Shown here: one piece after another, positions 183-58,857 of the stretch | Layout: each line of letters starts with the position of its first letter | How positions within the stretch are numbered: the stretch's first letter is position 1 | DNA from: a virus | IMG/VR virus record: IMGVR_UViG_3300032299_001203 | Location: 40,087-104,086 of that record | Direction: 5' to 3' (one strand) | DNA length: 64,000 nt | Position numbers and translations under genes: made by a program | The notes under the pieces: model-generated | Told to the model about the DNA's origin: nothing | Seen by the model: the letters and a program-made list of their open reading frames with translations, nothing else | Databases searched by the model: none

Positions 183-3092
183 ATGATTTTAGATAATCAC
201 AAAACATCATTACAGGTTGCTAAACAACTTCCTGAATTTATTCAGGATGATTCAGCTTATCAAAATTTTGTTTCTTTTATTGAAGCATACTATCAATGGA
301 TGGAAACAACTCATAGTGCAAATGCATCAAATACCATTGTTACTTCAAGTGACCAAGGTATAACACACGCATCAAAGAATTTATTAAATTATTCTGATGT
401 TGACAATACATTAGATGAATTTATTGATTATTTTATTAATGATTTTCTTCCTTACATACCAAAAGATGCTTTAACGGACAAAAGAAAATTATTAAAAATA
501 TCAAAAGAATTATACAACAACAAAGGAACAGAAAGTTCTTATAAATTCCTGTTTAGAGCTTTATATAACTCAAGTGCCGAAATATTTAACACATCTGATA
601 CAGTTTTAAAAGCTTCAGATGGCAAATGGGTAATTACAAAATCTTTAAGAATAGATTCTTTAAATCCAAATTGGCTTTTAATTAATAATTTAAGAATTTT
701 TGGAGAAACAACCAAATCATATGCAACAATTGAATATTCAAGTGTAACTGGTTCTAAAACTGAAGTTTTTATTTCAAACATACAGAGATTATTTAATTCT
801 GGAGAATTTGTTCGTGTAGTTGACAACAATAATTTAGATGTTTATTTCCTTAATGGTAAAGTTTATATTCAAAACCAAGGAGTAAACATACCAGAAAACG
901 CTGTGATACTAAGAGGTAAAATTATTGGTGTTATTTCATCGATTAGAATAAACTCCAAAGAACGTGGCCAATTTTATGAACCAGGTGATCCTGTTATTAT
1001 TTCTGGCGGATTAAATCCGGATGTTGTTGATCCAGTTGGTGCAGAAGCTTTTGTTGGTCAAACAACAAGAGGTAGTATTTCATCTATAGTTGTTACTGAT
1101 GGATCAAATGGCTTTCAATTGCCTCCTAATTCAGCTATTAATTTTTTAGGAACGGCAGACGCACCAGCAAGAGCTGAAATTAATTTATTGGATAGTGAAA
1201 AATTAACAAATGTTTCTTTTATTATCAGCAATTCTTTAGGTACGGCTTCAAATATAGCAATTGGCAATACAACTTTAGCACAAACATATAATATATTTCA
1301 AAATCCAGGTGTAACTAATACAAATTCTAGATTAGTGGATGCATTTACATTTACATCTTTTGTTGTTGGGCCAATCGGTTCTATTAAAATTACAAATCAA
1401 GGTGCAGGATATAATAAAACACCAAACGTTACTGTTACTTCTTTGTATTCTACTGACGCAGGACAAAGTGATTTAAAAAATCTTGGCATATTACAACCTA
1501 TTTCAATTCGAAATGCTGGTACTGGTTATGGAAACAATGACACAATTAGTATTGTTGGTGGTTTGGGATCAGGAGCGTTTGCGAACATAGTAGTTAACGC
1601 AACAGGATCAATTGTTAGGGCACCATACATATTTTCTGGCAACAATATAAACACAACTTACTCATTAGGTGGTTTTGGATACACACTTTCTGATCTACCA
1701 ACTATAATAATTAATAGTGAATATGGATCAAATGCAAGTCTTGTTATTCCAGGAATTATGGGAGATGGTGCAATTTTATCTCCAACAACGGATCGTATTG
1801 GCCAAATTTCAACCATCAATATTACCAATCCAGGCGAAGATTATGTTTCTGCACCAAAGGTATATTTAAATGTGCAAGATATTGCTCTGAGTAATGTGTC
1901 TGGAACAAATTCAATTGTTACCGGAGATATCATCTATCAAGGTAATACATACCTGTCTGCAACATATTCTGCAAATGTTTATTCTTTTATTAGAACTTCA
2001 TTTGACACCACAGGAAATACACAAAATGACATCTACAGATTAAGGGTGTATGATTATTCAGGAAATTATGCCGAAGGATTAACTTTAAATATTGATAGAG
2101 AAGTTGGCAACACAACAGTACAATTAAATTTCAGTCCACAACCAGTATTGATTAACAAAGCTGGTTTACCTGGCAGTATGATTAAATATGGTGATGGTAA
2201 TGCTAAAGCTAACGCAGCATTTTTAAATGGATTAATTGTTGGCCAAGGTGTATATTTAAATGAAGATGGACAACCTTCTTCATTAGGATTAGTTCTGGAG
2301 AGTTTAGATTATAATAAGTATACATATGTTTTATCGGTAGAAAAAGCTTTAAAATCATATAAAGATTTAATTTTAAACCTTTTACATCCCGCTGGTTCAA
2401 AACTTATTGGTAGAAATTTACTAAGAAGTTCCAATTCCTTTAACCTTGGAACAGAAACGGGGCACCAAAAAGGTTACACTTTGGAATATGTGGCTGGCGG
2501 AGCAGCTTACTTGACTTTAGAAGTTAACACCGCCACGGATATAATTAGCACCAATATTATCAAAGTCAACAATGTTATATCTGGTAATATTGGTAACACT
2601 ATATTTGCTAATGATTATATAAAATTTGAATCTAGCAATAATGTAAAAGTATACTCCTTAATTACTGACGTTGACTATGTAAATAACAAATTAACAATTG
2701 ATGACAACGTATTTTTAACTTTTGCAAATGTGGGCTTTGGATATGCAAATGCCTCCTCAAACGTCATAAATATAACATCAGTTACGGGACAATATGATGG
2801 TAATTTTGACAGTAAGACACCAGCCAATAACATTATATACGTTGGAGATAGTGTTTCGTTAAACGGTGGACCATATTATGCAGTCACCAGAGTATTCGCC
2901 AACGGTAACATATCGGTGGCCAACAGTTCATTTGGACCATCAGGTAATTCTAGAATAACAGTAAACAAGAATGCTAATACACAAACCGCATTCATATACG
3001 GTCAAGTATTTGTATATGATTATCCATTATTAGCAACAGAATCCGGCAATGAGATTATCACAGAACAAGGAACTTATCTAATCATAGGGTAA
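183..3092 (+). CDS. Baseplate wedge-like virion structural protein, 969 aa
   Basis: This large structural protein lies between a gp6-like end and gp8, the place of gp7 in T4, but I cannot show it is gp7. The N-terminal 150 residues are helical (LPEFI, FVSFIEAYYQWME, then NKGTESSYKFLFRALY and SDGKW), a signature I associate with large baseplate proteins of marine T4-like phages. The middle is beta-rich, with repeated units carrying an ITN-x-G-x-GY core (about residues 395-570). A further GDIIYQG unit near residue 580 is shared with gp8, gp14 and gp15. The C-terminal third is Asn/Ser/Thr-rich. No signal peptide or membrane segment is seen. Role in baseplate assembly is inferred from neighbours. 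Confidence 0.6.
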   Translation: MILDNHKTSLQVAKQLPEFIQDDSAYQNFVSFIEAYYQWMETTHSANASNTIVTSSDQGITHASKNLLNYSDVDNTLDEFIDYFINDFLPYIPKDALTDKRKLLKISKELYNNKGTESSYKFLFRALYNSSAEIFNTSDTVLKASDGKWVITKSLRIDSLNPNWLLINNLRIFGETTKSYATIEYSSVTGSKTEVFISNIQRLFNSGEFVRVVDNNNLDVYFLNGKVYIQNQGVNIPENAVILRGKIIGVISSIRINSKERGQFYEPGDPVIISGGLNPDVVDPVGAEAFVGQTTRGSISSIVVTDGSNGFQLPPNSAINFLGTADAPARAEINLLDSEKLTNVSFIISNSLGTASNIAIGNTTLAQTYNIFQNPGVTNTNSRLVDAFTFTSFVVGPIGSIKITNQGAGYNKTPNVTVTSLYSTDAGQSDLKNLGILQPISIRNAGTGYGNNDTISIVGGLGSGAFANIVVNATGSIVRAPYIFSGNNINTTYSLGGFGYTLSDLPTIIINSEYGSNASLVIPGIMGDGAILSPTTDRIGQISTINITNPGEDYVSAPKVYLNVQDIALSNVSGTNSIVTGDIIYQGNTYLSATYSANVYSFIRTSFDTTGNTQNDIYRLRVYDYSGNYAEGLTLNIDREVGNTTVQLNFSPQPVLINKAGLPGSMIKYGDGNAKANAAFLNGLIVGQGVYLNEDGQPSSLGLVLESLDYNKYTYVLSVEKALKSYKDLILNLLHPAGSKLIGRNLLRSSNSFNLGTETGHQKGYTLEYVAGGAAYLTLEVNTATDIISTNIIKVNNVISGNIGNTIFANDYIKFESSNNVKVYSLITDVDYVNNKLTIDDNVFLTFANVGFGYANASSNVINITSVTGQYDGNFDSKTPANNIIYVGDSVSLNGGPYYAVTRVFANGNISVANSSFGPSGNSRITVNKNANTQTAFIYGQVFVYDYPLLATESGNEIITEQGTYLIIG

Positions 3093-3096
3093 AAAA

Positions 3097-4755
3097 ATGG
3101 CAACAGTAAAAATATCACAACTACCAGTTTTATCACAGTTATCGGCTAACAACGCCAACACAGTATTTGTGGTGGTAGATAAAACCACCAATACAACTTC
3201 ACAGTTTTCTACCACGGTTTTAGCTCAAGGCTTATACGCCAACAATATTTTGAATGTTGGTACTGCAAACACAGGTCTTTTACTTCCTAATTCTGTAGCA
3301 CAATTTATTAGTAATACTGCAATCTTTTCACAAGTTAATTTTCAAAACATTAATTCAAAAGGTTCTGCTGATATTGTTATAACATCAGATGATGGTGATA
3401 ACTCAAATAATTATTTGGATTTGGGTGTTCAAGGTTCAAATATGGATGCTGATCCAACATTTGACTTACCCAATAATGATGGTTATTTGTATATGCATGG
3501 CAAGGACAATCAAAAGTATGGTAATTTATGGATTGGTACAGCGATTGCAAATACTGATTTAGTTTTCTTTACTGGTGATCATAAACAAGCCAATGAGGTT
3601 GCAAGAATTGAAGATGGTGTTGGTCTATCTTTAAAAATGCCTATCAAGTTTGCTGATGGCACCATACAGAACACGGCACCGGTCACAGCAGCACACTCAC
3701 AAGTTATTTTCAATCAAGCCAATTCAGCGTATAATTTTGCTATTAATGTAAACACTTATACTGCGGCAGTGTACGCTCTTTCTAATACACAAAGTAATAG
3801 TATAACAGTAATGCAAGGTGTTAATACAACACAGAATACCAACATCACAACTGCCAACAACCAAGCTTGGGCAGCTTTTGATGCTGCAAATACAAACTCT
3901 GGCAATATTGCCATACTACAGGCAGTTAACACAACACAGAACACCAACATCACTACAGCAAACAATCATGCTTGGGCTGCATTTACCAAAGCAAACAATG
4001 CTTTAGCCAATACAACAGGTATATTTGGTGGTACACTGACCATTACTGGTGATTTGGTGTTTGATGGCAGCCAAACTATTTCAGCAACTGATGATCTTTA
4101 TATTGGTTCAAACGCTGGTATACAAATACAAACTGATCTTGGCGGAACTCAGAAACAATTTCAATTTGGAACGGATGGAAATTTAACTGTTCCAAATTAT
4201 ATTGTATTCCCGGACAATACTGAAATTGGATATAATCCTTCTGCAAGTCCAACTTCTTTCATGGTTTCGACAGCAAACACATTGACATTGGAAGCAAATA
4301 CATACACTTGGGGTTTTGGCGCAGATGGTACTACGATATTTCCAAACGGATTGATTAAGACTCGGACCAATCAGTCCATTGGTATTTTAGCCATAGATGG
4401 CGGATCACTTTCAGAATATCCAGCACAGTTAATGGCACAGCAAGTGGCACAAGCTCAACCAGATACTATTATTTCTTCATATGATAATAGAGCTACTATC
4501 CAAACAAATGTTAATAGTACCATCAAGACTTGGACATTTGGCAGGAATGGTAGTTTAACATTCCCAGATTTATCTGTTCAAAACACCGCATTTACTGGTA
4601 CTGCAATTGACCAAAATGCAACCAATTTGGCTCAAAGTGCTTACGACAAAGCCAATACAACAGCCAATACAACAATTACCATATCACAATTAAAATCTAT
4701 ATCAGCAAATGCTGGAAATTTTGGCGATTTTCAAATTGCAATTGCTGCTTTATAA
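3097..4755 (+). CDS. Tail-fibre-like structural protein with AAFDxANT repeats
   Basis: A 552-residue low-complexity structural protein inserted between two baseplate wedge genes. It opens with KISQLPVLSQL, a start common in tail-fibre-like proteins of marine T4-like phages. Residues about 200-310 hold two near-identical units (VNTTQNTNITTANN followed by AWAAF-x-x-AN) that look like a trimeric coiled-coil or beta/alpha shaft. The remainder is beta-rich and Asn/Thr-rich. The last 27 residues (QLK to DFQIAIAAL) match the end of the small protein at 37884-38165. The gene starts 5 bases after the previous stop. Fibre or baseplate-decoration role is inferred from composition and repeats. Confidence 0.6.
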   Translation: MATVKISQLPVLSQLSANNANTVFVVVDKTTNTTSQFSTTVLAQGLYANNILNVGTANTGLLLPNSVAQFISNTAIFSQVNFQNINSKGSADIVITSDDGDNSNNYLDLGVQGSNMDADPTFDLPNNDGYLYMHGKDNQKYGNLWIGTAIANTDLVFFTGDHKQANEVARIEDGVGLSLKMPIKFADGTIQNTAPVTAAHSQVIFNQANSAYNFAINVNTYTAAVYALSNTQSNSITVMQGVNTTQNTNITTANNQAWAAFDAANTNSGNIAILQAVNTTQNTNITTANNHAWAAFTKANNALANTTGIFGGTLTITGDLVFDGSQTISATDDLYIGSNAGIQIQTDLGGTQKQFQFGTDGNLTVPNYIVFPDNTEIGYNPSASPTSFMVSTANTLTLEANTYTWGFGADGTTIFPNGLIKTRTNQSIGILAIDGGSLSEYPAQLMAQQVAQAQPDTIISSYDNRATIQTNVNSTIKTWTFGRNGSLTFPDLSVQNTAFTGTAIDQNATNLAQSAYDKANTTANTTITISQLKSISANAGNFGDFQIAIAAL

Positions 4756-4763
4756 AAACACTT

Positions 4764-4771
4764 AATAAATA
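4764..4771 (+). promoter_or_regulatory. Late-promoter-like motif AATAAATA just upstream of gp8
   Basis: The T4 late consensus is TATAAATA, read by a gp55-type sigma. This copy ends only 4 bases before the gp8 ATG at 4776, and no Shine-Dalgarno sequence is visible there. If it is used, the transcript would start at or near the start codon. It may equally be chance in AT-rich DNA. Confidence 0.3.
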
Positions 4772-4775
4772 AATC

Positions 4776-6188
4776 ATGGCAAATTTTACAGCAAACTCAT
4801 CTCAACTCATATACGGTAGTAAAATATATGAGGTACTACAATATTATTATGCTCCTGCAACCACTTCTAATGCCACAAACACATTACAGAATTCTTTGTA
4901 TGCGTTTATTGGCCAAGTGGATCCATGGCCAGATGAAGAAGAACCACCCACACCAACACAAGATCAATATTCTTTAAAACAAGTATTCAAAAATATTATT
5001 GCTGCCAAAAAGGTAACATCATCTGATATTTCTCCGGTAATACCAAGGCGAGATTGGAAAACTGGTGTAATATATAATCAGTATTCTGATACAGAAGATA
5101 TGTTTACGGTTGATGCCAATGGTATACTAACAAAAAATTTCTATGTACGAAATCGTTTCGATCAGGTGTTCAAATGTTTAGGAAATGCTAATGGATCACA
5201 ATCAACTATTGAACCTGAGTTTTTACCTGGTACATTTGATAAGTCATTCTTGGTAAAAACAGCAGATGGTTATAAGTGGAAATTTTTATATACAATCAAC
5301 ATTGGCCAAAAACAAAAATTCTTAGATACAAATTGGATGCCTGTGGTTGGTATTGGCCAAAACATTCCAAATCCGGTTGAAACTTTTGCTGCGCAAGGTG
5401 ATATTCAGGTTATTAATGTTACAAACACCGGCCGTGGTTACTTTTCTGGTGGTGTAAAAATTACCATTAATGGTGATGGTCAATTTGCAAATGCTACGGC
5501 TAGTGTTAACGCATCCGGCTTTATTACAGACATTGTTATGGCAAATACCGGCCAAGGATATACTTATGCCGAAACAATAATAACAACGGAGGCAGGTTAT
5601 CCGACCCCCAATGTAGTAGCTACTGCGAGTAGTCCTGTATCGCCTGTAGGAGGTCACGGATTCGATCCTATATCAGAATTAGGATGTAGTCACGCTATGA
5701 TGGCTTTAGAATTTACTGGCAGTGAAGGTGGATTAATACCAACCGATATCACTTACAGGCAATTAGGTCTGGTGTTGGATCCATATTCAAAAAGCAACTT
5801 AGGTAAACTCATACCATATGCAACCGAAACTGTATATGATGTAACGACAAGTATTTTGGTTTCTTCCGGATTAGGTTCGTATGTTAGTGGCCAAGTGGTT
5901 TATCAAGGACCATCTTTGGCAAGAGCAACTTTTAAAGCAAAAATTGTTAGTTTTGATCCAACAACCAATATATTAAAGGTCATAAATATAACAGGAACAC
6001 CAACTGCAAATGAAGTTCTTGTACAAGACAGTTTATTATCAGGTCAGGCTATTATTAGAACGTTATTACAGGTGACCGATCCTGATTTTATCATCTATTC
6101 TGGATATATCACTTATATAGAAAATAGAACAGGAGTTGAACGTAGCGGAGATGCTACTGAACAATTTCGTGTTGTGTTAAGATTTTAA
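4776..6188 (+). CDS. gp8: Baseplate wedge protein gp8
   Basis: Homologue of T4 gp8, a dimeric wedge component of the baseplate. Landmarks shared with T4 gp8 are VIPRRDW (about residue 88), the block TADGYKWKFLYTI (T4 has DGYVWEYLFEI), and the C-terminal SGYITYIENR followed by an acidic EQFRVVLRF end (T4 has GEMIYMENRPP and an ILFTF end). At 470 residues it is longer than T4 gp8 (about 334). The extra length includes a beta insert with TNTGRGY and ANTGQGY repeats (about residues 208-265) and a GQVVYQG unit near residue 370, both shared with neighbouring baseplate and neck proteins. No ribosome binding site is obvious. Confidence 0.9.
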   Translation: MANFTANSSQLIYGSKIYEVLQYYYAPATTSNATNTLQNSLYAFIGQVDPWPDEEEPPTPTQDQYSLKQVFKNIIAAKKVTSSDISPVIPRRDWKTGVIYNQYSDTEDMFTVDANGILTKNFYVRNRFDQVFKCLGNANGSQSTIEPEFLPGTFDKSFLVKTADGYKWKFLYTINIGQKQKFLDTNWMPVVGIGQNIPNPVETFAAQGDIQVINVTNTGRGYFSGGVKITINGDGQFANATASVNASGFITDIVMANTGQGYTYAETIITTEAGYPTPNVVATASSPVSPVGGHGFDPISELGCSHAMMALEFTGSEGGLIPTDITYRQLGLVLDPYSKSNLGKLIPYATETVYDVTTSILVSSGLGSYVSGQVVYQGPSLARATFKAKIVSFDPTTNILKVINITGTPTANEVLVQDSLLSGQAIIRTLLQVTDPDFIIYSGYITYIENRTGVERSGDATEQFRVVLRF

Positions 6189-53627: not shown

Positions 53628-54710
53628 ATGAAAGTAGCAATTATTACTGACCAGCACTTTGGTGCTAGGAACGATTCAATCCATTTCTTAGATTATTATG
53701 AACGGTTTTATCGTGATACCTTTTTTCCAACCCTTGAAGAACATGGTATTAATACTGTTCTTATTTTAGGTGATACCTTTGATCGTAGAAAATATGTAAA
53801 TTTCTACACACTCAAACGATCAAGAGAAATGTTTTTCGATAAACTGTATGCAAAAGGTATACAGGTACACATGTTGGCTGGTAACCATGATACCTATTTT
53901 AAAAATACCAATGAGGTCAATTCAGTTGATTTATTATTACAAGAATATAGTAATATCAACGTCATTTCATCTCCACAAACCATTCATTTAAAATATAGTG
54001 ATACCGGTTATGATATCTGTATGGTACCATGGATTTGTCCAGAAAATTACAATAACAGTTTGGCAGAAATACAAAACACCTCGGCAAGCATTTGTATGGG
54101 ACATTTTGAGATTGCCGGTTTTGCCATGTATCGTGGCATGCCAAGCCAGGAAGGATTAAGTCGAGAATTATTCAGACGCTTCGATTTTACTTTTAGCGGT
54201 CACTATCATCATAGAAGTTCAGCTGATGATATACATTATCTTGGAAACCCGTATGAACTTACTTGGCAAGATTATAATGACCCTAGAGGGTTTCATCTTT
54301 TTGATCTTGCTACACGCAGTCTTACTTTGATAAAAAATCCAAATGTGATGTTTCATAGAATTGTTTATGATGATAAAGTGGAATCAATTACGGATATTAC
54401 CAATAAAGATTTGAGTAAGTATACCAATACCTATGTCAAAGTGGTGGTAATTAACAAAACAAACCCCTATCTGTTCGATAAGTTTATGAACAGCCTATAC
54501 AATGTCAATCCAGTTGATATTACCATTGCCGAGGACTTTACGGACTTGACAGAAGGTGTAGAAGATGATATGATTGATCAAGCAGAAGATACTATTACAA
54601 TTATTAATAAATTTGTGGATGGTATTCAAGAAGAACATATTAATAATGAAAAGCTAAAAACAGTAATGCGTGAATTATATGTAGAGGCATTGAACCAAGA
54701 ACAGGCATGA
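53628..54710 (+). CDS. gp47: Recombination endonuclease subunit gp47 (Mre11/SbcD-like)
   Basis: The nuclease partner of gp46, used in DNA-end resection and host DNA degradation in T4. Metallophosphoesterase motifs: TDQHFGARND (Asp8, His10), LGDTFDRRK (Asp49), LAGNHDTY (Asn86, His87), CMGHFEIAG and FSGHYHHRS. 360 residues against T4 339. Overlaps gp46 by ATGA, so the subunits are co-translated. Confidence 0.95.
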   Translation: MKVAIITDQHFGARNDSIHFLDYYERFYRDTFFPTLEEHGINTVLILGDTFDRRKYVNFYTLKRSREMFFDKLYAKGIQVHMLAGNHDTYFKNTNEVNSVDLLLQEYSNINVISSPQTIHLKYSDTGYDICMVPWICPENYNNSLAEIQNTSASICMGHFEIAGFAMYRGMPSQEGLSRELFRRFDFTFSGHYHHRSSADDIHYLGNPYELTWQDYNDPRGFHLFDLATRSLTLIKNPNVMFHRIVYDDKVESITDITNKDLSKYTNTYVKVVVINKTNPYLFDKFMNSLYNVNPVDITIAEDFTDLTEGVEDDMIDQAEDTITIINKFVDGIQEEHINNEKLKTVMRELYVEALNQEQA

Positions 54711-56422
54711 TTAAATTTGAAAAAGTCCGTTGGAAGAATTTTCTTTCGACCGGAGCAATATTTACGGAAATTAATTTAACCAAATCACCGAACACACTCA
54801 TCATTGGTAACAATGGTGCCGGCAAATCTACAATATTAGATGCCTTATGTTTTGGTCTCTTTGGTAAACCATTTCGTAAAATTAATAAACCACAGTTACC
54901 AAACTCCATCAACCAATCCGATTGTGTGGTTGAGATTGAGTTTTCGATTGGCAAAAAACAATACAAAGTAATTCGTGGTATTAAACCAAATATATTTGAG
55001 GTTTATTGCAATGGTGTAATGGTTGACCAAGATGCCAAGGCCAAAGATTACCAAGAACACTTAGAAAAGTTTATTCTTAAATTAAATTATAAATCGTTCA
55101 CTCAAGTAGTAATTCTTGGTTCAGCATCGTTTGTTCCTTTCATGCAGTTATCTCCGTCTGACCGGCGAGCCATTATTGAGGACTTACTGGACATTCAAAT
55201 CTTTTCGTCTATGAATGGTGTGGTCAAAGAAAAAATGGCCGTCATTAAAGACACCTTTACCAAAAATAAGTATGAAATGGATTTAACATCCGAGAAAATT
55301 AACTTTCAGAAACAAAGTATTGAAGATCATAAGAGTCGTTCTGATGAAGAAATCACCAAGAAGCGTAAAGAGATTGCCGATTCGGTTGATCAAATCTTTA
55401 CACTAGAAAGAGATGTTGAATTAATTCAAAAACATATTGCCGTGTTACAGAGTAAGATTGCCGATCAAATGGCCATGCAAAAAAAGAGTGGCAAACTGAT
55501 TCATCTGGAATCCAAATTAGAATCTCGTTTAAAGAAGATTGAAAAAGAAGTAGGATTCTACCACGATAATAGTGATTGTCCCACTTGTAAACAAGGTATT
55601 GACCAAGAATTTAGAGAAGAACAGATTACCACATTAAATGAAACTAAGATTGAAGTTAATGGTGCATTAACGGATATAGCAAAACAAATTGCAGAAACAA
55701 GTAATAGAATTGATACAATACAAAAGATACTACAACACATACAGGCACACAGTAATGAGGTTGTAAAACACAATTCTACCATTACAGCCGTGAATAGTTT
55801 TATCAATAAACTACAAAATGAAATTAATGAGTTATCCAATCACAAAGATAACCTAGAAGAAGAAAATGCCAAATTAAAAGAACTTAAAACAGAACTTGTT
55901 GCATTGGTTGCCAAACAAGAAGGCCTTGCAACCGAAAAACAATATTATGAATTTGCTGGTAATTTATTAAAAGATACCGGCATTAAAACAAAGATTATTC
56001 GCCAATACTTACCTATTATGAATAAACTAATTAATAAGTATTTGACGGCCATGGATTTCTTTGTAAATTTTAACATCAATGAATCGTTTGAAGAAACAAT
56101 TAAATCTAGGCATCGTGATGAGTTCAGTTATGCTAACTTCTCAGAAGGCGAGAAAATGCGAATTGATTTGGCTCTGTTATTTACATGGCGTCAAATTGCC
56201 AAGTTAAAGAATAGCACCAATACCAATCTGTTGATTCTTGATGAGGTGTTTGATTCTTCTTTAGATGGTGTTGGTACTGAGGAATTTTTAAAGTTGATTC
56301 ATGAGATGGGTAATGATACCAACATTTTTGTTATATCCCATAAAGGTGACCAGTTGTTTGATAAATTCAGGTCAATTATTAAATTTGAAAAGAAAAATAA
56401 TTTTAGTCAGGTGGCAAAATGA
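54707..56422 (+). CDS. gp46: Recombination endonuclease subunit gp46 (Rad50/SbcC-like ATPase)
   Basis: Walker A IGNNGAGKST (33-42), a long coiled coil broken by a zinc-hook CPTC (Cys291, Cys294), ABC signature NFSEGEKMRIDLALLF, and Walker B LLILDEVFDSSLDG define an SMC/Rad50-type ATPase. It forms the gp46/gp47 complex that resects ends for recombination-dependent replication. 571 residues against T4 560. It overlaps the following heme oxygenase gene by ATGA. Confidence 0.95.
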   Translation: MIKFEKVRWKNFLSTGAIFTEINLTKSPNTLIIGNNGAGKSTILDALCFGLFGKPFRKINKPQLPNSINQSDCVVEIEFSIGKKQYKVIRGIKPNIFEVYCNGVMVDQDAKAKDYQEHLEKFILKLNYKSFTQVVILGSASFVPFMQLSPSDRRAIIEDLLDIQIFSSMNGVVKEKMAVIKDTFTKNKYEMDLTSEKINFQKQSIEDHKSRSDEEITKKRKEIADSVDQIFTLERDVELIQKHIAVLQSKIADQMAMQKKSGKLIHLESKLESRLKKIEKEVGFYHDNSDCPTCKQGIDQEFREEQITTLNETKIEVNGALTDIAKQIAETSNRIDTIQKILQHIQAHSNEVVKHNSTITAVNSFINKLQNEINELSNHKDNLEEENAKLKELKTELVALVAKQEGLATEKQYYEFAGNLLKDTGIKTKIIRQYLPIMNKLINKYLTAMDFFVNFNINESFEETIKSRHRDEFSYANFSEGEKMRIDLALLFTWRQIAKLKNSTNTNLLILDEVFDSSLDGVGTEEFLKLIHEMGNDTNIFVISHKGDQLFDKFRSIIKFEKKNNFSQVAK

Positions 56423-56967
56423 GTGTGTTGAGAGAATATACTAATGCAAAACATCGAGAAGCGGAATCTAAACCTTTCGTTCAATATCTTCTTGGTGGAA
56501 CAATTACAAAACCACATTACGTGATGTATCTACAACAGATGTTTCCTGTTTATGCTATCTTGGAATATTATGCGGAATTGGCTGGTTTAATTCAAGATTT
56601 ACCGGACATAAAAAGGTCCAATTATATTCTACAAGATTTGTCTGAATTACATTCTGGTTATCCAACCAACAAATACGAAAGCACACAAAAGTACCGTAAA
56701 CACATAGAAGAATTGTTTTACACACCTGAAAAAAGACACCTTTTGTTGGCACACATCTATGTTAGACACATGGGTGATTTATATGGTGGAAAGATTATTG
56801 CAAAAAGAGTACCCGGTTCTGGCAAAGCATATCAGTTTGAAGATAGACCCGCATTAATCAAAGCATTGGATGCTAAATTATCCACAGAGTTAGTTGAAGA
56901 AGCTTTACTCGGATTCGAATTGTCTATGGGAATATTTGATGAATTACAGGAGAAAATAAATGAGTGA
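56419..56967 (+). CDS. Heme oxygenase
   Basis: Heme oxygenase opens heme to biliverdin, CO and iron. The family pattern is present: proximal heme ligand His12 in NAKHREAES, the aromatic KPHYVMYLQQMFPVYAILE, and the distal-helix signature HIYVRHMGDLYGGKIIAK (112-129) with Gly119, the catalytic-type Asp120 and the GG pair. 182 residues, short like phage versions. Known in cyanophages (ho1), where it feeds phycobilin synthesis, but no bilin reductase is seen here. It is coupled to gp46 (ATGA) and to the deformylase (8-base overlap). An iron-scavenging or redox role is an alternative. Confidence 0.8.
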   Translation: MSVLREYTNAKHREAESKPFVQYLLGGTITKPHYVMYLQQMFPVYAILEYYAELAGLIQDLPDIKRSNYILQDLSELHSGYPTNKYESTQKYRKHIEELFYTPEKRHLLLAHIYVRHMGDLYGGKIIAKRVPGSGKAYQFEDRPALIKALDAKLSTELVEEALLGFELSMGIFDELQEKINE

Positions 56968-57532
56968 TATAATCACATTCAACACAGAAGATGCAGTAAA
57001 AGTTTCTGAACCTAAAAAACAAATTAATACTTTTAAATTGGTGGCAGAAACAGATCCTATTTTAAATGAGGTAATGCCAGAATTTAATTTTAATAATCCA
57101 CCAGTTAATCCTAGTTTATTTGCATCCACTCTTGTTGAAACATGCAAACACAATCGTGGTTATGGATTGTCAGCAAACCAATGTGGTTTTAAGTATCGAG
57201 TATTTGTTATGGGTGTCGATGATGATTTTGTGGCATTTTTTAATCCAGAAATAATTAATTCTTCAAAAGAAGAAAGTCATATGATAGAAGGATGCCTTTC
57301 TTTTCCTTTACTAGGCTTAAGAATTAGCAGACCAGCTGAAATAGGAGTCCGATATCAAGATTTTAATGGAGAATGGAAAGGTGCCACTTTTTCTGGCATA
57401 TCTGCTCGTTGTTTTCAACATGAGCTTGACCACATGAATGGAATAGTTTATACTAGTAAAACTAAACCAATGGCATTGCAATCTGGAATGCAAAAACGAA
57501 ATAAATTAATGAAGAAATTGAAACTTAAATAA
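56960..57532 (+). CDS. def: Peptide deformylase
   Basis: Removes the formyl group from new proteins. All three family motifs are intact: GYGLSANQ (67-74), EGCLS (110-114, with metal ligand Cys112) and HELDH (154-158). 190 residues. Phage deformylases are known from marine T4-like phages, where they are thought to help host (often photosystem) protein turnover. It is coupled to genes on both sides (8-base overlap with heme oxygenase, TAATG with the next gene). Confidence 0.93.
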   Translation: MSDIITFNTEDAVKVSEPKKQINTFKLVAETDPILNEVMPEFNFNNPPVNPSLFASTLVETCKHNRGYGLSANQCGFKYRVFVMGVDDDFVAFFNPEIINSSKEESHMIEGCLSFPLLGLRISRPAEIGVRYQDFNGEWKGATFSGISARCFQHELDHMNGIVYTSKTKPMALQSGMQKRNKLMKKLKLK

Positions 57533-58857
57533 TGGCAAAAAAGATTGATACCATAAGTACATTATGGGGTGATGAAGAAGTTGTTGTTTCAACTAAAGAA
57601 ATTGGAACACCTGAAGAACAATGGGAAGTTTGGCAAAAACAAAATCCTATAGAATCTTTTGAACACATTGATGACCTTATTTTAAAAGAAACTTTAATCT
57701 CCGATTTAAGATATGCTTCGGATATGGATGTTCGTGAATATACATTATATCAAAAATGGTGTGAAATCAAAGAAAGATATCCCGTACATGAAGTATCAAC
57801 TATGTCAGATGGTATTGAAATACAAATAATTGATAAAAAACAAGAAGAACTAATTAGAGAAGTTAAAGAAAACTTTTGGGTACCAGAATCTCCTGATGAT
57901 TATGAAAAATTGGAACCTGTTATGATTCTTTCGAATGGTCCTGGAGTTGAAACTTGGAATGCCATTCGTACCTTTTCTTCTACAATGAAAAATAATAGTA
58001 ACATTGGTCGTAATCTGTATTATATTTTACAAGATAAAGTTACAAAAAAATATCTTGGTGTCATCTGTATCTCCTCAGACTTCTTGGACTTGACTCCAAG
58101 AGATAATGCAATCGGTTGGCCAAGAGATGTCAAAACAAAACAAAACATGATTAATCATACGGCAATCGGTTCTACAATTGTTCCGTTACAACCGCTTGGT
58201 TATAATTATATGGGCGGTAAATTATTAGCTTTGATGTGCCTATCTGATACCGTTCAAAAAGATTGGAAAGAAAGATATGGTGATACTTTGGTCGGAGTTA
58301 CCACAACTAGTCTTTATGGAAAAACTAAAGCTGGTGGATTATCGCAATATGACGGACTCGAACATTGGAAGGCAATGGGATTTTCTTCAGGCTCGGTTGC
58401 TTTTGAACCGACTAGAGAAACTAAAAAAATGGTATTTGACTGGATTAAAAAGAACCACACCAAAAAATATTTTGAATGGTGGGACGCCAAAAATCCTCAA
58501 GGACTTCCACTCAAACGAGACCATAAAAATCGTTCTTTGAATTTTGCTTATTCAAAACTCAATATTCCTAAAGAACTAATTCGTACAGAACACCAACGTG
58601 GTATCTATTTTAGTCCGCTGTATAATAATACAAACGAGTTTCTACGTAAAGAAATTACGGATGAATCACTGGTAAAGTCATTTGATACCAGTGAAGAAGC
58701 ATTGGCAAATATTTGGAAAACCAAATATGCCAAAGGTAGAATTAGGCAATTACAAAAGAAAAATAATGTTTCATATGAATCACTCTTTTATGATGACCTT
58801 ATCTACCTGTCTTGGGAACAAACCAAGGCAAAGTATTTGCCACAAGTTGGCAGATGA
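57532..58857 (+). CDS. DUF4338 (DruA-like) protein, 441 aa
   Basis: Residues about 158-290 fit DUF4338: IGRNLYYILQDKVTKKYLGVI, LTPRDNAIGWP, an Asn-rich NMINHTAIGSTIVPLQPLGYNYMGGKLLALM and DWKERYGDTLVGVTTTSL. This domain defines DruA, a component of the Druantia anti-phage system. Here it is flanked by an N-terminal helical ~150 residues and a C-terminal ~140 residues without a known domain. Similar large DUF4338 proteins occur in T4-like marine phages, but their job is not established. It could be a nucleic-acid-binding enzyme or a counter-defence protein. It is last in the gp47-gp46-ho-def run. Confidence 0.6.
   Translation: MAKKIDTISTLWGDEEVVVSTKEIGTPEEQWEVWQKQNPIESFEHIDDLILKETLISDLRYASDMDVREYTLYQKWCEIKERYPVHEVSTMSDGIEIQIIDKKQEELIREVKENFWVPESPDDYEKLEPVMILSNGPGVETWNAIRTFSSTMKNNSNIGRNLYYILQDKVTKKYLGVICISSDFLDLTPRDNAIGWPRDVKTKQNMINHTAIGSTIVPLQPLGYNYMGGKLLALMCLSDTVQKDWKERYGDTLVGVTTTSLYGKTKAGGLSQYDGLEHWKAMGFSSGSVAFEPTRETKKMVFDWIKKNHTKKYFEWWDAKNPQGLPLKRDHKNRSLNFAYSKLNIPKELIRTEHQRGIYFSPLYNNTNEFLRKEITDESLVKSFDTSEEALANIWKTKYAKGRIRQLQKKNNVSYESLFYDDLIYLSWEQTKAKYLPQVGR

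What the first reader, a model, noticed from the sequence alone, without database searches (positions are those of the whole stretch)
56419..56967. Heme oxygenase gene without any visible bilin pathway
Phage heme oxygenases are known mainly from cyanophages, together with bilin reductases. Here the catalytic His12 and Asp120/GG signature are intact, but the gene is fused by start/stop overlap into the gp47-gp46 recombination run, with peptide deformylase after it and no photosynthesis gene in 64 kb. It may release iron, make a bilin for a host photoreceptor, or detoxify heme in a non-cyanobacterial host.
Basis: partly seen in the sequence, partly recalled or inferred. Interest (0 to 1): 0.62.

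Follow-up and report, generated by a model that had tools for sequence, protein, structure and literature searches.

The report
Phage heme oxygenase without bilin reductase
A T4-like phage carries an intact heme-breaking enzyme from a distinct phage lineage that has lost the pigment-making partner gene, and whose genes sometimes sit beside iron-enzyme genes, suggesting that these phages may use it to free iron from heme rather than to make light-harvesting pigments.

Summary
Window 56419-56967 encodes a complete heme oxygenase (HO): Pfam PF01126 E=3.6e-17, a model with mean pLDDT 95.8 whose listed top 50 PDB matches are all HOs, intact catalytic residues, and dN/dS of 0.04-0.08. It overlaps gp46 and peptide deformylase. 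No bilin reductase (FDBR), psbA, phytochrome, ferredoxin, AlaS or ferrochelatase was found in the whole 104-kb contig.

The absence is a property of a lineage. Most related phage HOs sit in the known hemO-pcyX cassette: 29 of 30 records outside this lineage carry an FDBR. The window's HO belongs to a well-supported clade in which only 1 of 19 contigs does, including two apparently complete genomes without one. That exception appears to have re-acquired an FDBR from cassette phages. The clade also replaced the heme-propionate arginine (human HO-1 Arg183) with Asp or Asn. In other members HO abuts NrdB or a Dps/ferritin.

Best explanation: an active phage HO, descended from bilin cassettes and kept to release heme iron during infection. 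Enzyme identity is secure; the iron role and any change in cleavage site are inferences. Phage HOs outside cyanophages were already known (Mosig, CB_2); I found no description of this FDBR-less clade. Host unknown.

The parts
56419..56967 (+). Heme oxygenase gene (182 aa), short phage type
   Evidence: PF01126 E=3.6e-17; AF2 model pLDDT 95.8 with PDB HO matches; dN/dS 0.04-0.08
56452..56454 (+). His12 codon, proximal heme ligand by homology with human HO-1 His25
   Evidence: invariant in all aligned HOs
56758..56760 (+). Tyr114 codon, equivalent of Tyr134 (propionate contact), kept
   Evidence: invariant; role in PMC7948506
56776..56778 (+). Asp120 codon, equivalent of the catalytic distal Asp140, kept
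   Evidence: invariant
56791..56793 (+). Lys125 codon (GGK); Gln in every HO outside the clade
   Evidence: K 30/30 in clade, Q 41/41 outside plus cyanophages
56857..56859 (+). Ile147 codon, at the position four before the Arg183 equivalent (human Lys179)
   Evidence: I 30/30 in clade; K 25/41 outside and 3/3 cyanophage-type
56869..56871 (+). Asp151 codon, at the position of the heme-propionate Arg (human Arg183)
   Evidence: D/N 29/30 in clade; R 40/41 outside; the profile's R column aligns with the Arg of solved Synechocystis HO-1, 1we1
54707..56422 (+). gp46-like recombination nuclease subunit (SMC/RecN family)
   Evidence: PF02463, PF13476; best isolate match Methylophilales phage Melnitz, 52%
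53628..54710 (+). gp47-like recombination nuclease subunit (calcineurin-like phosphoesterase)
   Evidence: PF00149
56960..57532 (+). Peptide deformylase, overlapping the HO end
   Evidence: PF01327 E=3.3e-34

Best explanation
The gene makes an active canonical heme oxygenase that opens host heme with O2 and host-supplied electrons, giving a biliverdin, CO and free ferrous iron. It belongs to a phage clade that descends from the hemO-pcyX bilin cassette but lost the bilin reductase, so the retained benefit is most likely the released iron (and removal of heme). That iron could metallate iron enzymes that the replicating phage needs, such as class-I ribonucleotide reductase. Shown by computation: HO identity, intact catalytic residues, purifying selection, clade-wide absence of the bilin reductase, and substituted propionate anchors. 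Inferred: catalytic activity, iron as the useful product, and relaxed cleavage regiochemistry.
For: HO identity and residues. Purifying selection. In 49 records searched whole, an FDBR is present in 29 of 30 outside the clade (Mosig, P-SSM2 and P-RSM6 act as positive controls) but in only 1 of 19 inside it. The clade-wide absence includes apparently complete G016 (161.8 kb) and G022 (169.8 kb), which have 127- and 114-base terminal repeats. A PcyX profile run without filters finds nothing better than E=0.19 in five genomes, against about 1e-84 to 1e-124 for full-length true FDBRs. Tree: the window HO is in a 30-row clade (100/96) nested among cassette HOs; the single FDBR-bearing lineage has a reductase placed upstream that is 79% identical to a cassette-phage one. 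Iron context: HO lies between a DNase and NrdB (PF00268, E=4.8e-75) with 1-base junctions in one subclade, and directly after a Dps/ferritin (PF00210, E=2e-22) in another. Cyanophage P-RSM6 independently has HO between nrdA and nrdB.
Against: In the window's own subclade HO is not next to NrdB or Dps, and neither was found in this 104-kb contig, although its apparently complete relative G016 has an NrdB elsewhere. The neighbouring deformylase is ancestral to the position. Dps also occurs in some FDBR-bearing phages, so its presence alone does not discriminate. The NrdB/Dps link was noticed after looking. No phage-encoded ferredoxin was found, so electrons must come from the host. One subclade with the same altered residues has taken up an FDBR again, which suggests its HO can still supply a usable biliverdin.
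Confidence: 0.5

Rival explanations
1. Biliverdin supply: the phage HO makes biliverdin IX-alpha, used directly by a host bacteriophytochrome or turned into a bilin by a host enzyme, so only the first step is phage-encoded.
For: The enzyme is canonical. One subclade (L043/L044) keeps the same residue changes yet has an adjacent FDBR. Biliverdin is itself the chromophore of bacteriophytochromes (established knowledge; BphO/BphP in PMC6018153).
Against: No PHY domain in the phage or its relatives. The alpha-directing propionate arginine is Asp/Asn in this clade. Known hosts of the nearest isolates, SAR11 and OM43-type Methylophilales, are not known for phytochromes (own knowledge, untested).
Confidence: 0.2
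2. Heme detoxification or virocell remodelling: the HO removes free heme released as host respiratory cytochromes turn over, or its CO/biliverdin tunes host redox state.
For: The same reaction would do it, and FDBR loss fits. Cassette-type relatives sit beside HSP70, HSP20 and ClpS stress genes.
Against: Stress-gene context was not seen next to HO in the window's own clade, while NrdB and Dps contexts point to iron.
Confidence: 0.15
3. The bilin reductase exists but was missed: it lies in the unsequenced part of this incomplete contig or is too diverged to recognise.
For: The contig is a 104-kb linear fragment of a genome that is probably about 140-160 kb.
Against: Near-complete and apparently complete relatives G015, G016, G022 and G025 lack it by Pfam and by a PcyX profile. 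In known short-type cassettes it is adjacent to HO, whereas here both neighbours are identified (gp46, deformylase).
Confidence: 0.07
4. The protein is a non-catalytic heme-binding or degenerate HO-fold protein.
For: Arg183 and Lys179 equivalents are lost in the clade.
Against: All catalytic residues are invariant, selection is strong and the fold is well predicted.
Confidence: 0.06

Closest known systems
hemO-pcyX (vhemO-vpcyA/X-valaS) phage cassettes, e.g. pelagiphage Mosig and freshwater phage CB_2 (PMC11480375)
   Same: Same short HO subfamily (33.7% identity to Mosig; about 37-46% to most cassette HOs in IMG/VR); T4-like aquatic phages outside cyanobacteria; same catalytic residues
   Different: No bilin reductase or AlaS; different genomic position; Asp/Asn, Ile and Lys in place of the propionate Arg, Lys179 equivalent and Gln
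Cyanophage ho1 (P-SSM2, P-RSM6, P-HM1)
   Same: Canonical HO in T4-like phages; in P-RSM6 the HO also sits next to nrdB
   Different: 26-27% identity, longer protein (about 233 aa), keeps Arg/Lys anchors; P-SSM2 and P-RSM6 genomes carry psbA and FDBRs; cyanobacterial hosts
Iron-acquisition bacterial HOs (HmuO of Corynebacterium; PigA/HemO of Pseudomonas)
   Same: Proposed purpose, iron from heme without a bilin pathway; HmuO has the same fold (TM 0.81-0.85)
   Different: Cellular and used to take iron from external heme; HmuO makes biliverdin IX-alpha; PigA is a divergent HO that makes beta/delta biliverdin

Membership tests
Canonical heme oxygenase (PF01126) | Profile match above curated cut-off | tested here: met
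   63.3 bits against 23
Canonical heme oxygenase (PF01126) | All-alpha HO fold | tested here: met
   AF2 pLDDT 95.8; the listed 50 PDB matches are all HOs, TM 0.79-0.85
Canonical heme oxygenase (PF01126) | Proximal His, distal Gly-Asp-x-x-Gly-Gly and Arg136 equivalent | tested here: met
   His12, Arg116, Gly119, Asp120, Gly123, Gly124 invariant
Canonical heme oxygenase (PF01126) | Heme-propionate anchors Lys18, Tyr134, Arg183 (conserved trio of PMC7948506) | tested here: not met
   Arg5 and Tyr114 kept; Arg183 position is Asp151 here and D/N in 29 of 30 clade members. This anchor seats the heme and tunes regiochemistry; it does not define family membership
Canonical heme oxygenase (PF01126) | Converts heme to biliverdin, CO and iron | not testable with these tools
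   needs purified protein
Phage hemO-pcyX bilin cassette | HO of the short phage type | tested here: met
   tree and alignment
Phage hemO-pcyX bilin cassette | Ferredoxin-dependent bilin reductase in the genome, usually adjacent | tested here: not met
   absent from the contig and from near-complete relatives
Cyanophage photosynthesis/bilin AMG set | psbA and pebS/pcyA present | tested here: not met
   PF00124 and PF05996 absent; both ring in P-SSM2 and P-RSM6 controls
TenA/PqqC-like proteins | Better match to TENA_THI-4/PqqC than to HO | tested here: not met
   only PF01126 matches in Pfam

The most novel reading that the evidence does not exclude
A dedicated phage iron-mobilising heme oxygenase lineage that lost the bilin reductase and, with Asp/Asn at the Arg183 position, no longer cleaves heme strictly at the alpha carbon. 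The released iron feeds phage ribonucleotide reductase or Dps.
Probability: 0.22. Interest if true: 0.75.

Novelty: new variant of a known kind. Interest (0 to 1): 0.52.

Why it matters
Why non-cyanobacterial phages carry heme oxygenase is openly described as speculation in the 2024 paper on these cassettes (PMC11480375, which mentions iron supply only as a possibility). A clade that keeps HO under strong selection after losing the bilin reductase separates the two hypotheses naturally: whatever benefit remains cannot be a phage-made phycobilin. It gives testable proteins, with a predicted regiochemistry change and operon links to NrdB and Dps, and it would add heme iron as a resource that phages tap for DNA synthesis.

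Tried and rejected
(1) TenA/PqqC misidentification: rejected. (2) Missed FDBR: tested with Pfam and with a home-made PcyX profile without filters on five genomes; nothing. (3) Peptide deformylase as an Fe(II)-enzyme partner: dropped as evidence because HO-less Methylophilales phage Melnitz already has gp46, a small gene, then deformylase; HO was probably inserted at a variable spot. (4) Bacterial donor: the genome-contig scan gave only three matches at 35-40%, in MAG contigs that may themselves be viral, so neither donor nor host is resolved. (5) Altered residues as a marker of FDBR absence: only clade-level. L043/L044 carry the changes plus an FDBR, and Mosig has Asn at the same position with PcyX, so it counts as one evolutionary event. 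(6) Dps presence as a discriminator: rejected, also found in FDBR phages. (7) Mosig 'ferrochelatase' as a heme link: it does not match PF00762. (8) A rival pairwise alignment (HO-2) puts Asp151 away from Arg183. I prefer the multiple alignment because the profile R column aligns with the Arg of solved Synechocystis HO-1 and with the cyanophage HOs. Coordinates of the model were not available to check it in 3D.

Full report
What is there. The window is bases 40087-104086 of a 104,086-base viral contig. At 56419-56967 lies a 182-codon gene whose only Pfam match is heme oxygenase (PF01126, E=3.6e-17). The closest solved proteins are heme oxygenases. An AlphaFold2 model from 48 relatives has mean pLDDT 95.8, and the listed top 50 PDB matches are all heme oxygenases, TM 0.79-0.85. 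The protein is about 20-30 residues shorter than the solved HOs, mainly through a deletion after the distal helix, as in other short phage HOs. His12, Tyr114, Arg116, Gly119, Asp120, Gly123 and Gly124 are invariant. Five close relatives give dN/dS of 0.044-0.080. The gene overlaps gp46 by ATGA and peptide deformylase by 8 bases. TenA/PqqC is excluded.

No bilin pathway. The whole contig has no ferredoxin-dependent bilin reductase, ferrochelatase, Fer2 ferredoxin, AlaS, psbA or phytochrome PHY domain. Because the contig is incomplete, relatives matter. G015 (136 kb), G016 (162 kb), G022 (170 kb) and G025 (160 kb) all carry a homologous HO. G016 and G022 have exact terminal repeats of 127 and 114 bases, so their assemblies look closed. 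None has a bilin reductase by Pfam or by an unfiltered PcyX profile search (best E 0.19).

A clade, not an accident. A profile scan of IMG/VR found at least 345 related HO loci, of which 80 were kept. Among 49 records searched whole, 29 of 30 outside the window's clade carry a bilin reductase; the one without is a 67-kb fragment. Inside the clade 1 of 19 does. In a tree of 74 HOs the window's protein is in a 30-row group (100/96 support) nested among cassette HOs. Its one FDBR-bearing lineage, L043/L044, has the reductase upstream instead of downstream, and that reductase is 79% identical to one from a cassette phage. Holding the reductase-free members apart from L043/L044 is rejected (p-AU 0.0135). 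The simplest history is loss of the reductase once and re-acquisition once. The direction rests on outgroup and midpoint placement and is an inference.

Changed heme anchors. Three positions separate the clade from the others: Lys125 (30/30) against Gln (41/41); Asp or Asn151 (29/30) against Arg (40/41); Ile147 (30/30) against Lys in 25 of 41 others and in all three cyanophage-type HOs. In the multiple alignment, and in the profile alignment to solved Synechocystis HO-1, column 151 is the heme-propionate arginine, Arg183 of human HO-1; 147 would be Lys179. PMC7948506 describes Lys18, Tyr134 and Arg183 as conserved propionate anchors, and its reference list includes studies in which an Arg183 change (R183E) alters the regiospecificity of heme cleavage (the R183E human HO-1 structure, 1xk2, is also listed). 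Iron-acquiring PigA/HemO makes beta/delta biliverdin with a rotated heme (PMC6018153). So relaxed regiochemistry is a prediction and not a result. New basic residues Arg143 (26/30) and Lys148 (25/30) may compensate. Mosig (Asn151 with PcyX) and L043/L044 are counter-examples to a strict link.

Genomic context. In the window's subclade HO lies between gp46 and peptide deformylase. In the NrdA-DNase-HO-NrdB subclade (L045, L046, L047, L050, L056) it joins NrdB at its own stop codon. In L054/L055 it directly follows a Dps/ferritin. In L053/L048/L049 it follows a gene with a weak pyrimidine-dimer-glycosylase match. Cyanophage P-RSM6, with a distant HO, also has it between nrdA and nrdB. Cassette phages instead show HSP70-HSP20-ClpS-HO-FDBR or a Mosig-type gene of unknown function before HO-FDBR. 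The iron theme was noticed after the fact and is suggestive only. The deformylase is not counted, since the HO-less phage Melnitz has it at the same place.

Mechanism. Shown: a maintained HO with intact catalytic residues, decoupled from bilin reduction. Inferred: it uses host electrons to open host heme, and the useful product is iron, or secondarily heme removal. Rivals are listed with their tests.

Host and novelty. The major capsid protein and gp46 are nearest to Methylophilales phage Melnitz (65%, 52%); for the capsid protein SAR11 phage Mosig is next (64.9%). These are too distant to name a host. Phage HOs outside cyanophages, hemO-pcyX cassettes and an iron-supply idea are published (PMC11480375, PMC7892664). 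I found no account of a reductase-free clade in the papers searched, which cover only open-licence literature.

Noticed in passing
window 57532-58857: The gene after peptide deformylase matches DruA of the Druantia defence system (PF14236, E=4.1e-19); G015 has two homologues. A DruA-like protein as a conserved T4-like phage gene is unexplained.
   Followed up: no
L068:4881-9222, and L062, L065-L067, L073-L077, L084-L089, L100-L107: In many cassette-bearing phages HO-FDBR is preceded by HSP70, HSP20 and ClpS genes (Pfam-checked in L068; the same gene sizes in the others), a conserved stress/proteolysis and bilin gene run.
   Followed up: partly
L020:4910-5680 and homologues in L064, L071, L072, L079-L083, L090, L096: Mosig 'putative ferrochelatase' has no Pfam match but its homologues directly precede HO-FDBR in a whole subclade: a likely uncharacterised partner of the bilin cassette.
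   Followed up: partly
G000 contig bases 1691-12032 (left of the window; L021): An island mostly absent from G015 that by eye encodes radical-SAM-like proteins, several 2OG-Fe(II)-oxygenase-like proteins and a carbamoyltransferase-like protein, resembling a natural-product or cell-surface modification cluster (names unconfirmed by search).
   Followed up: no
L109 (P-RSM6) 1657-5821: Cyanophage P-RSM6 has its HO between ribonucleotide reductase subunits A and B, independently of the NrdB-linked subclade here.
   Followed up: partly
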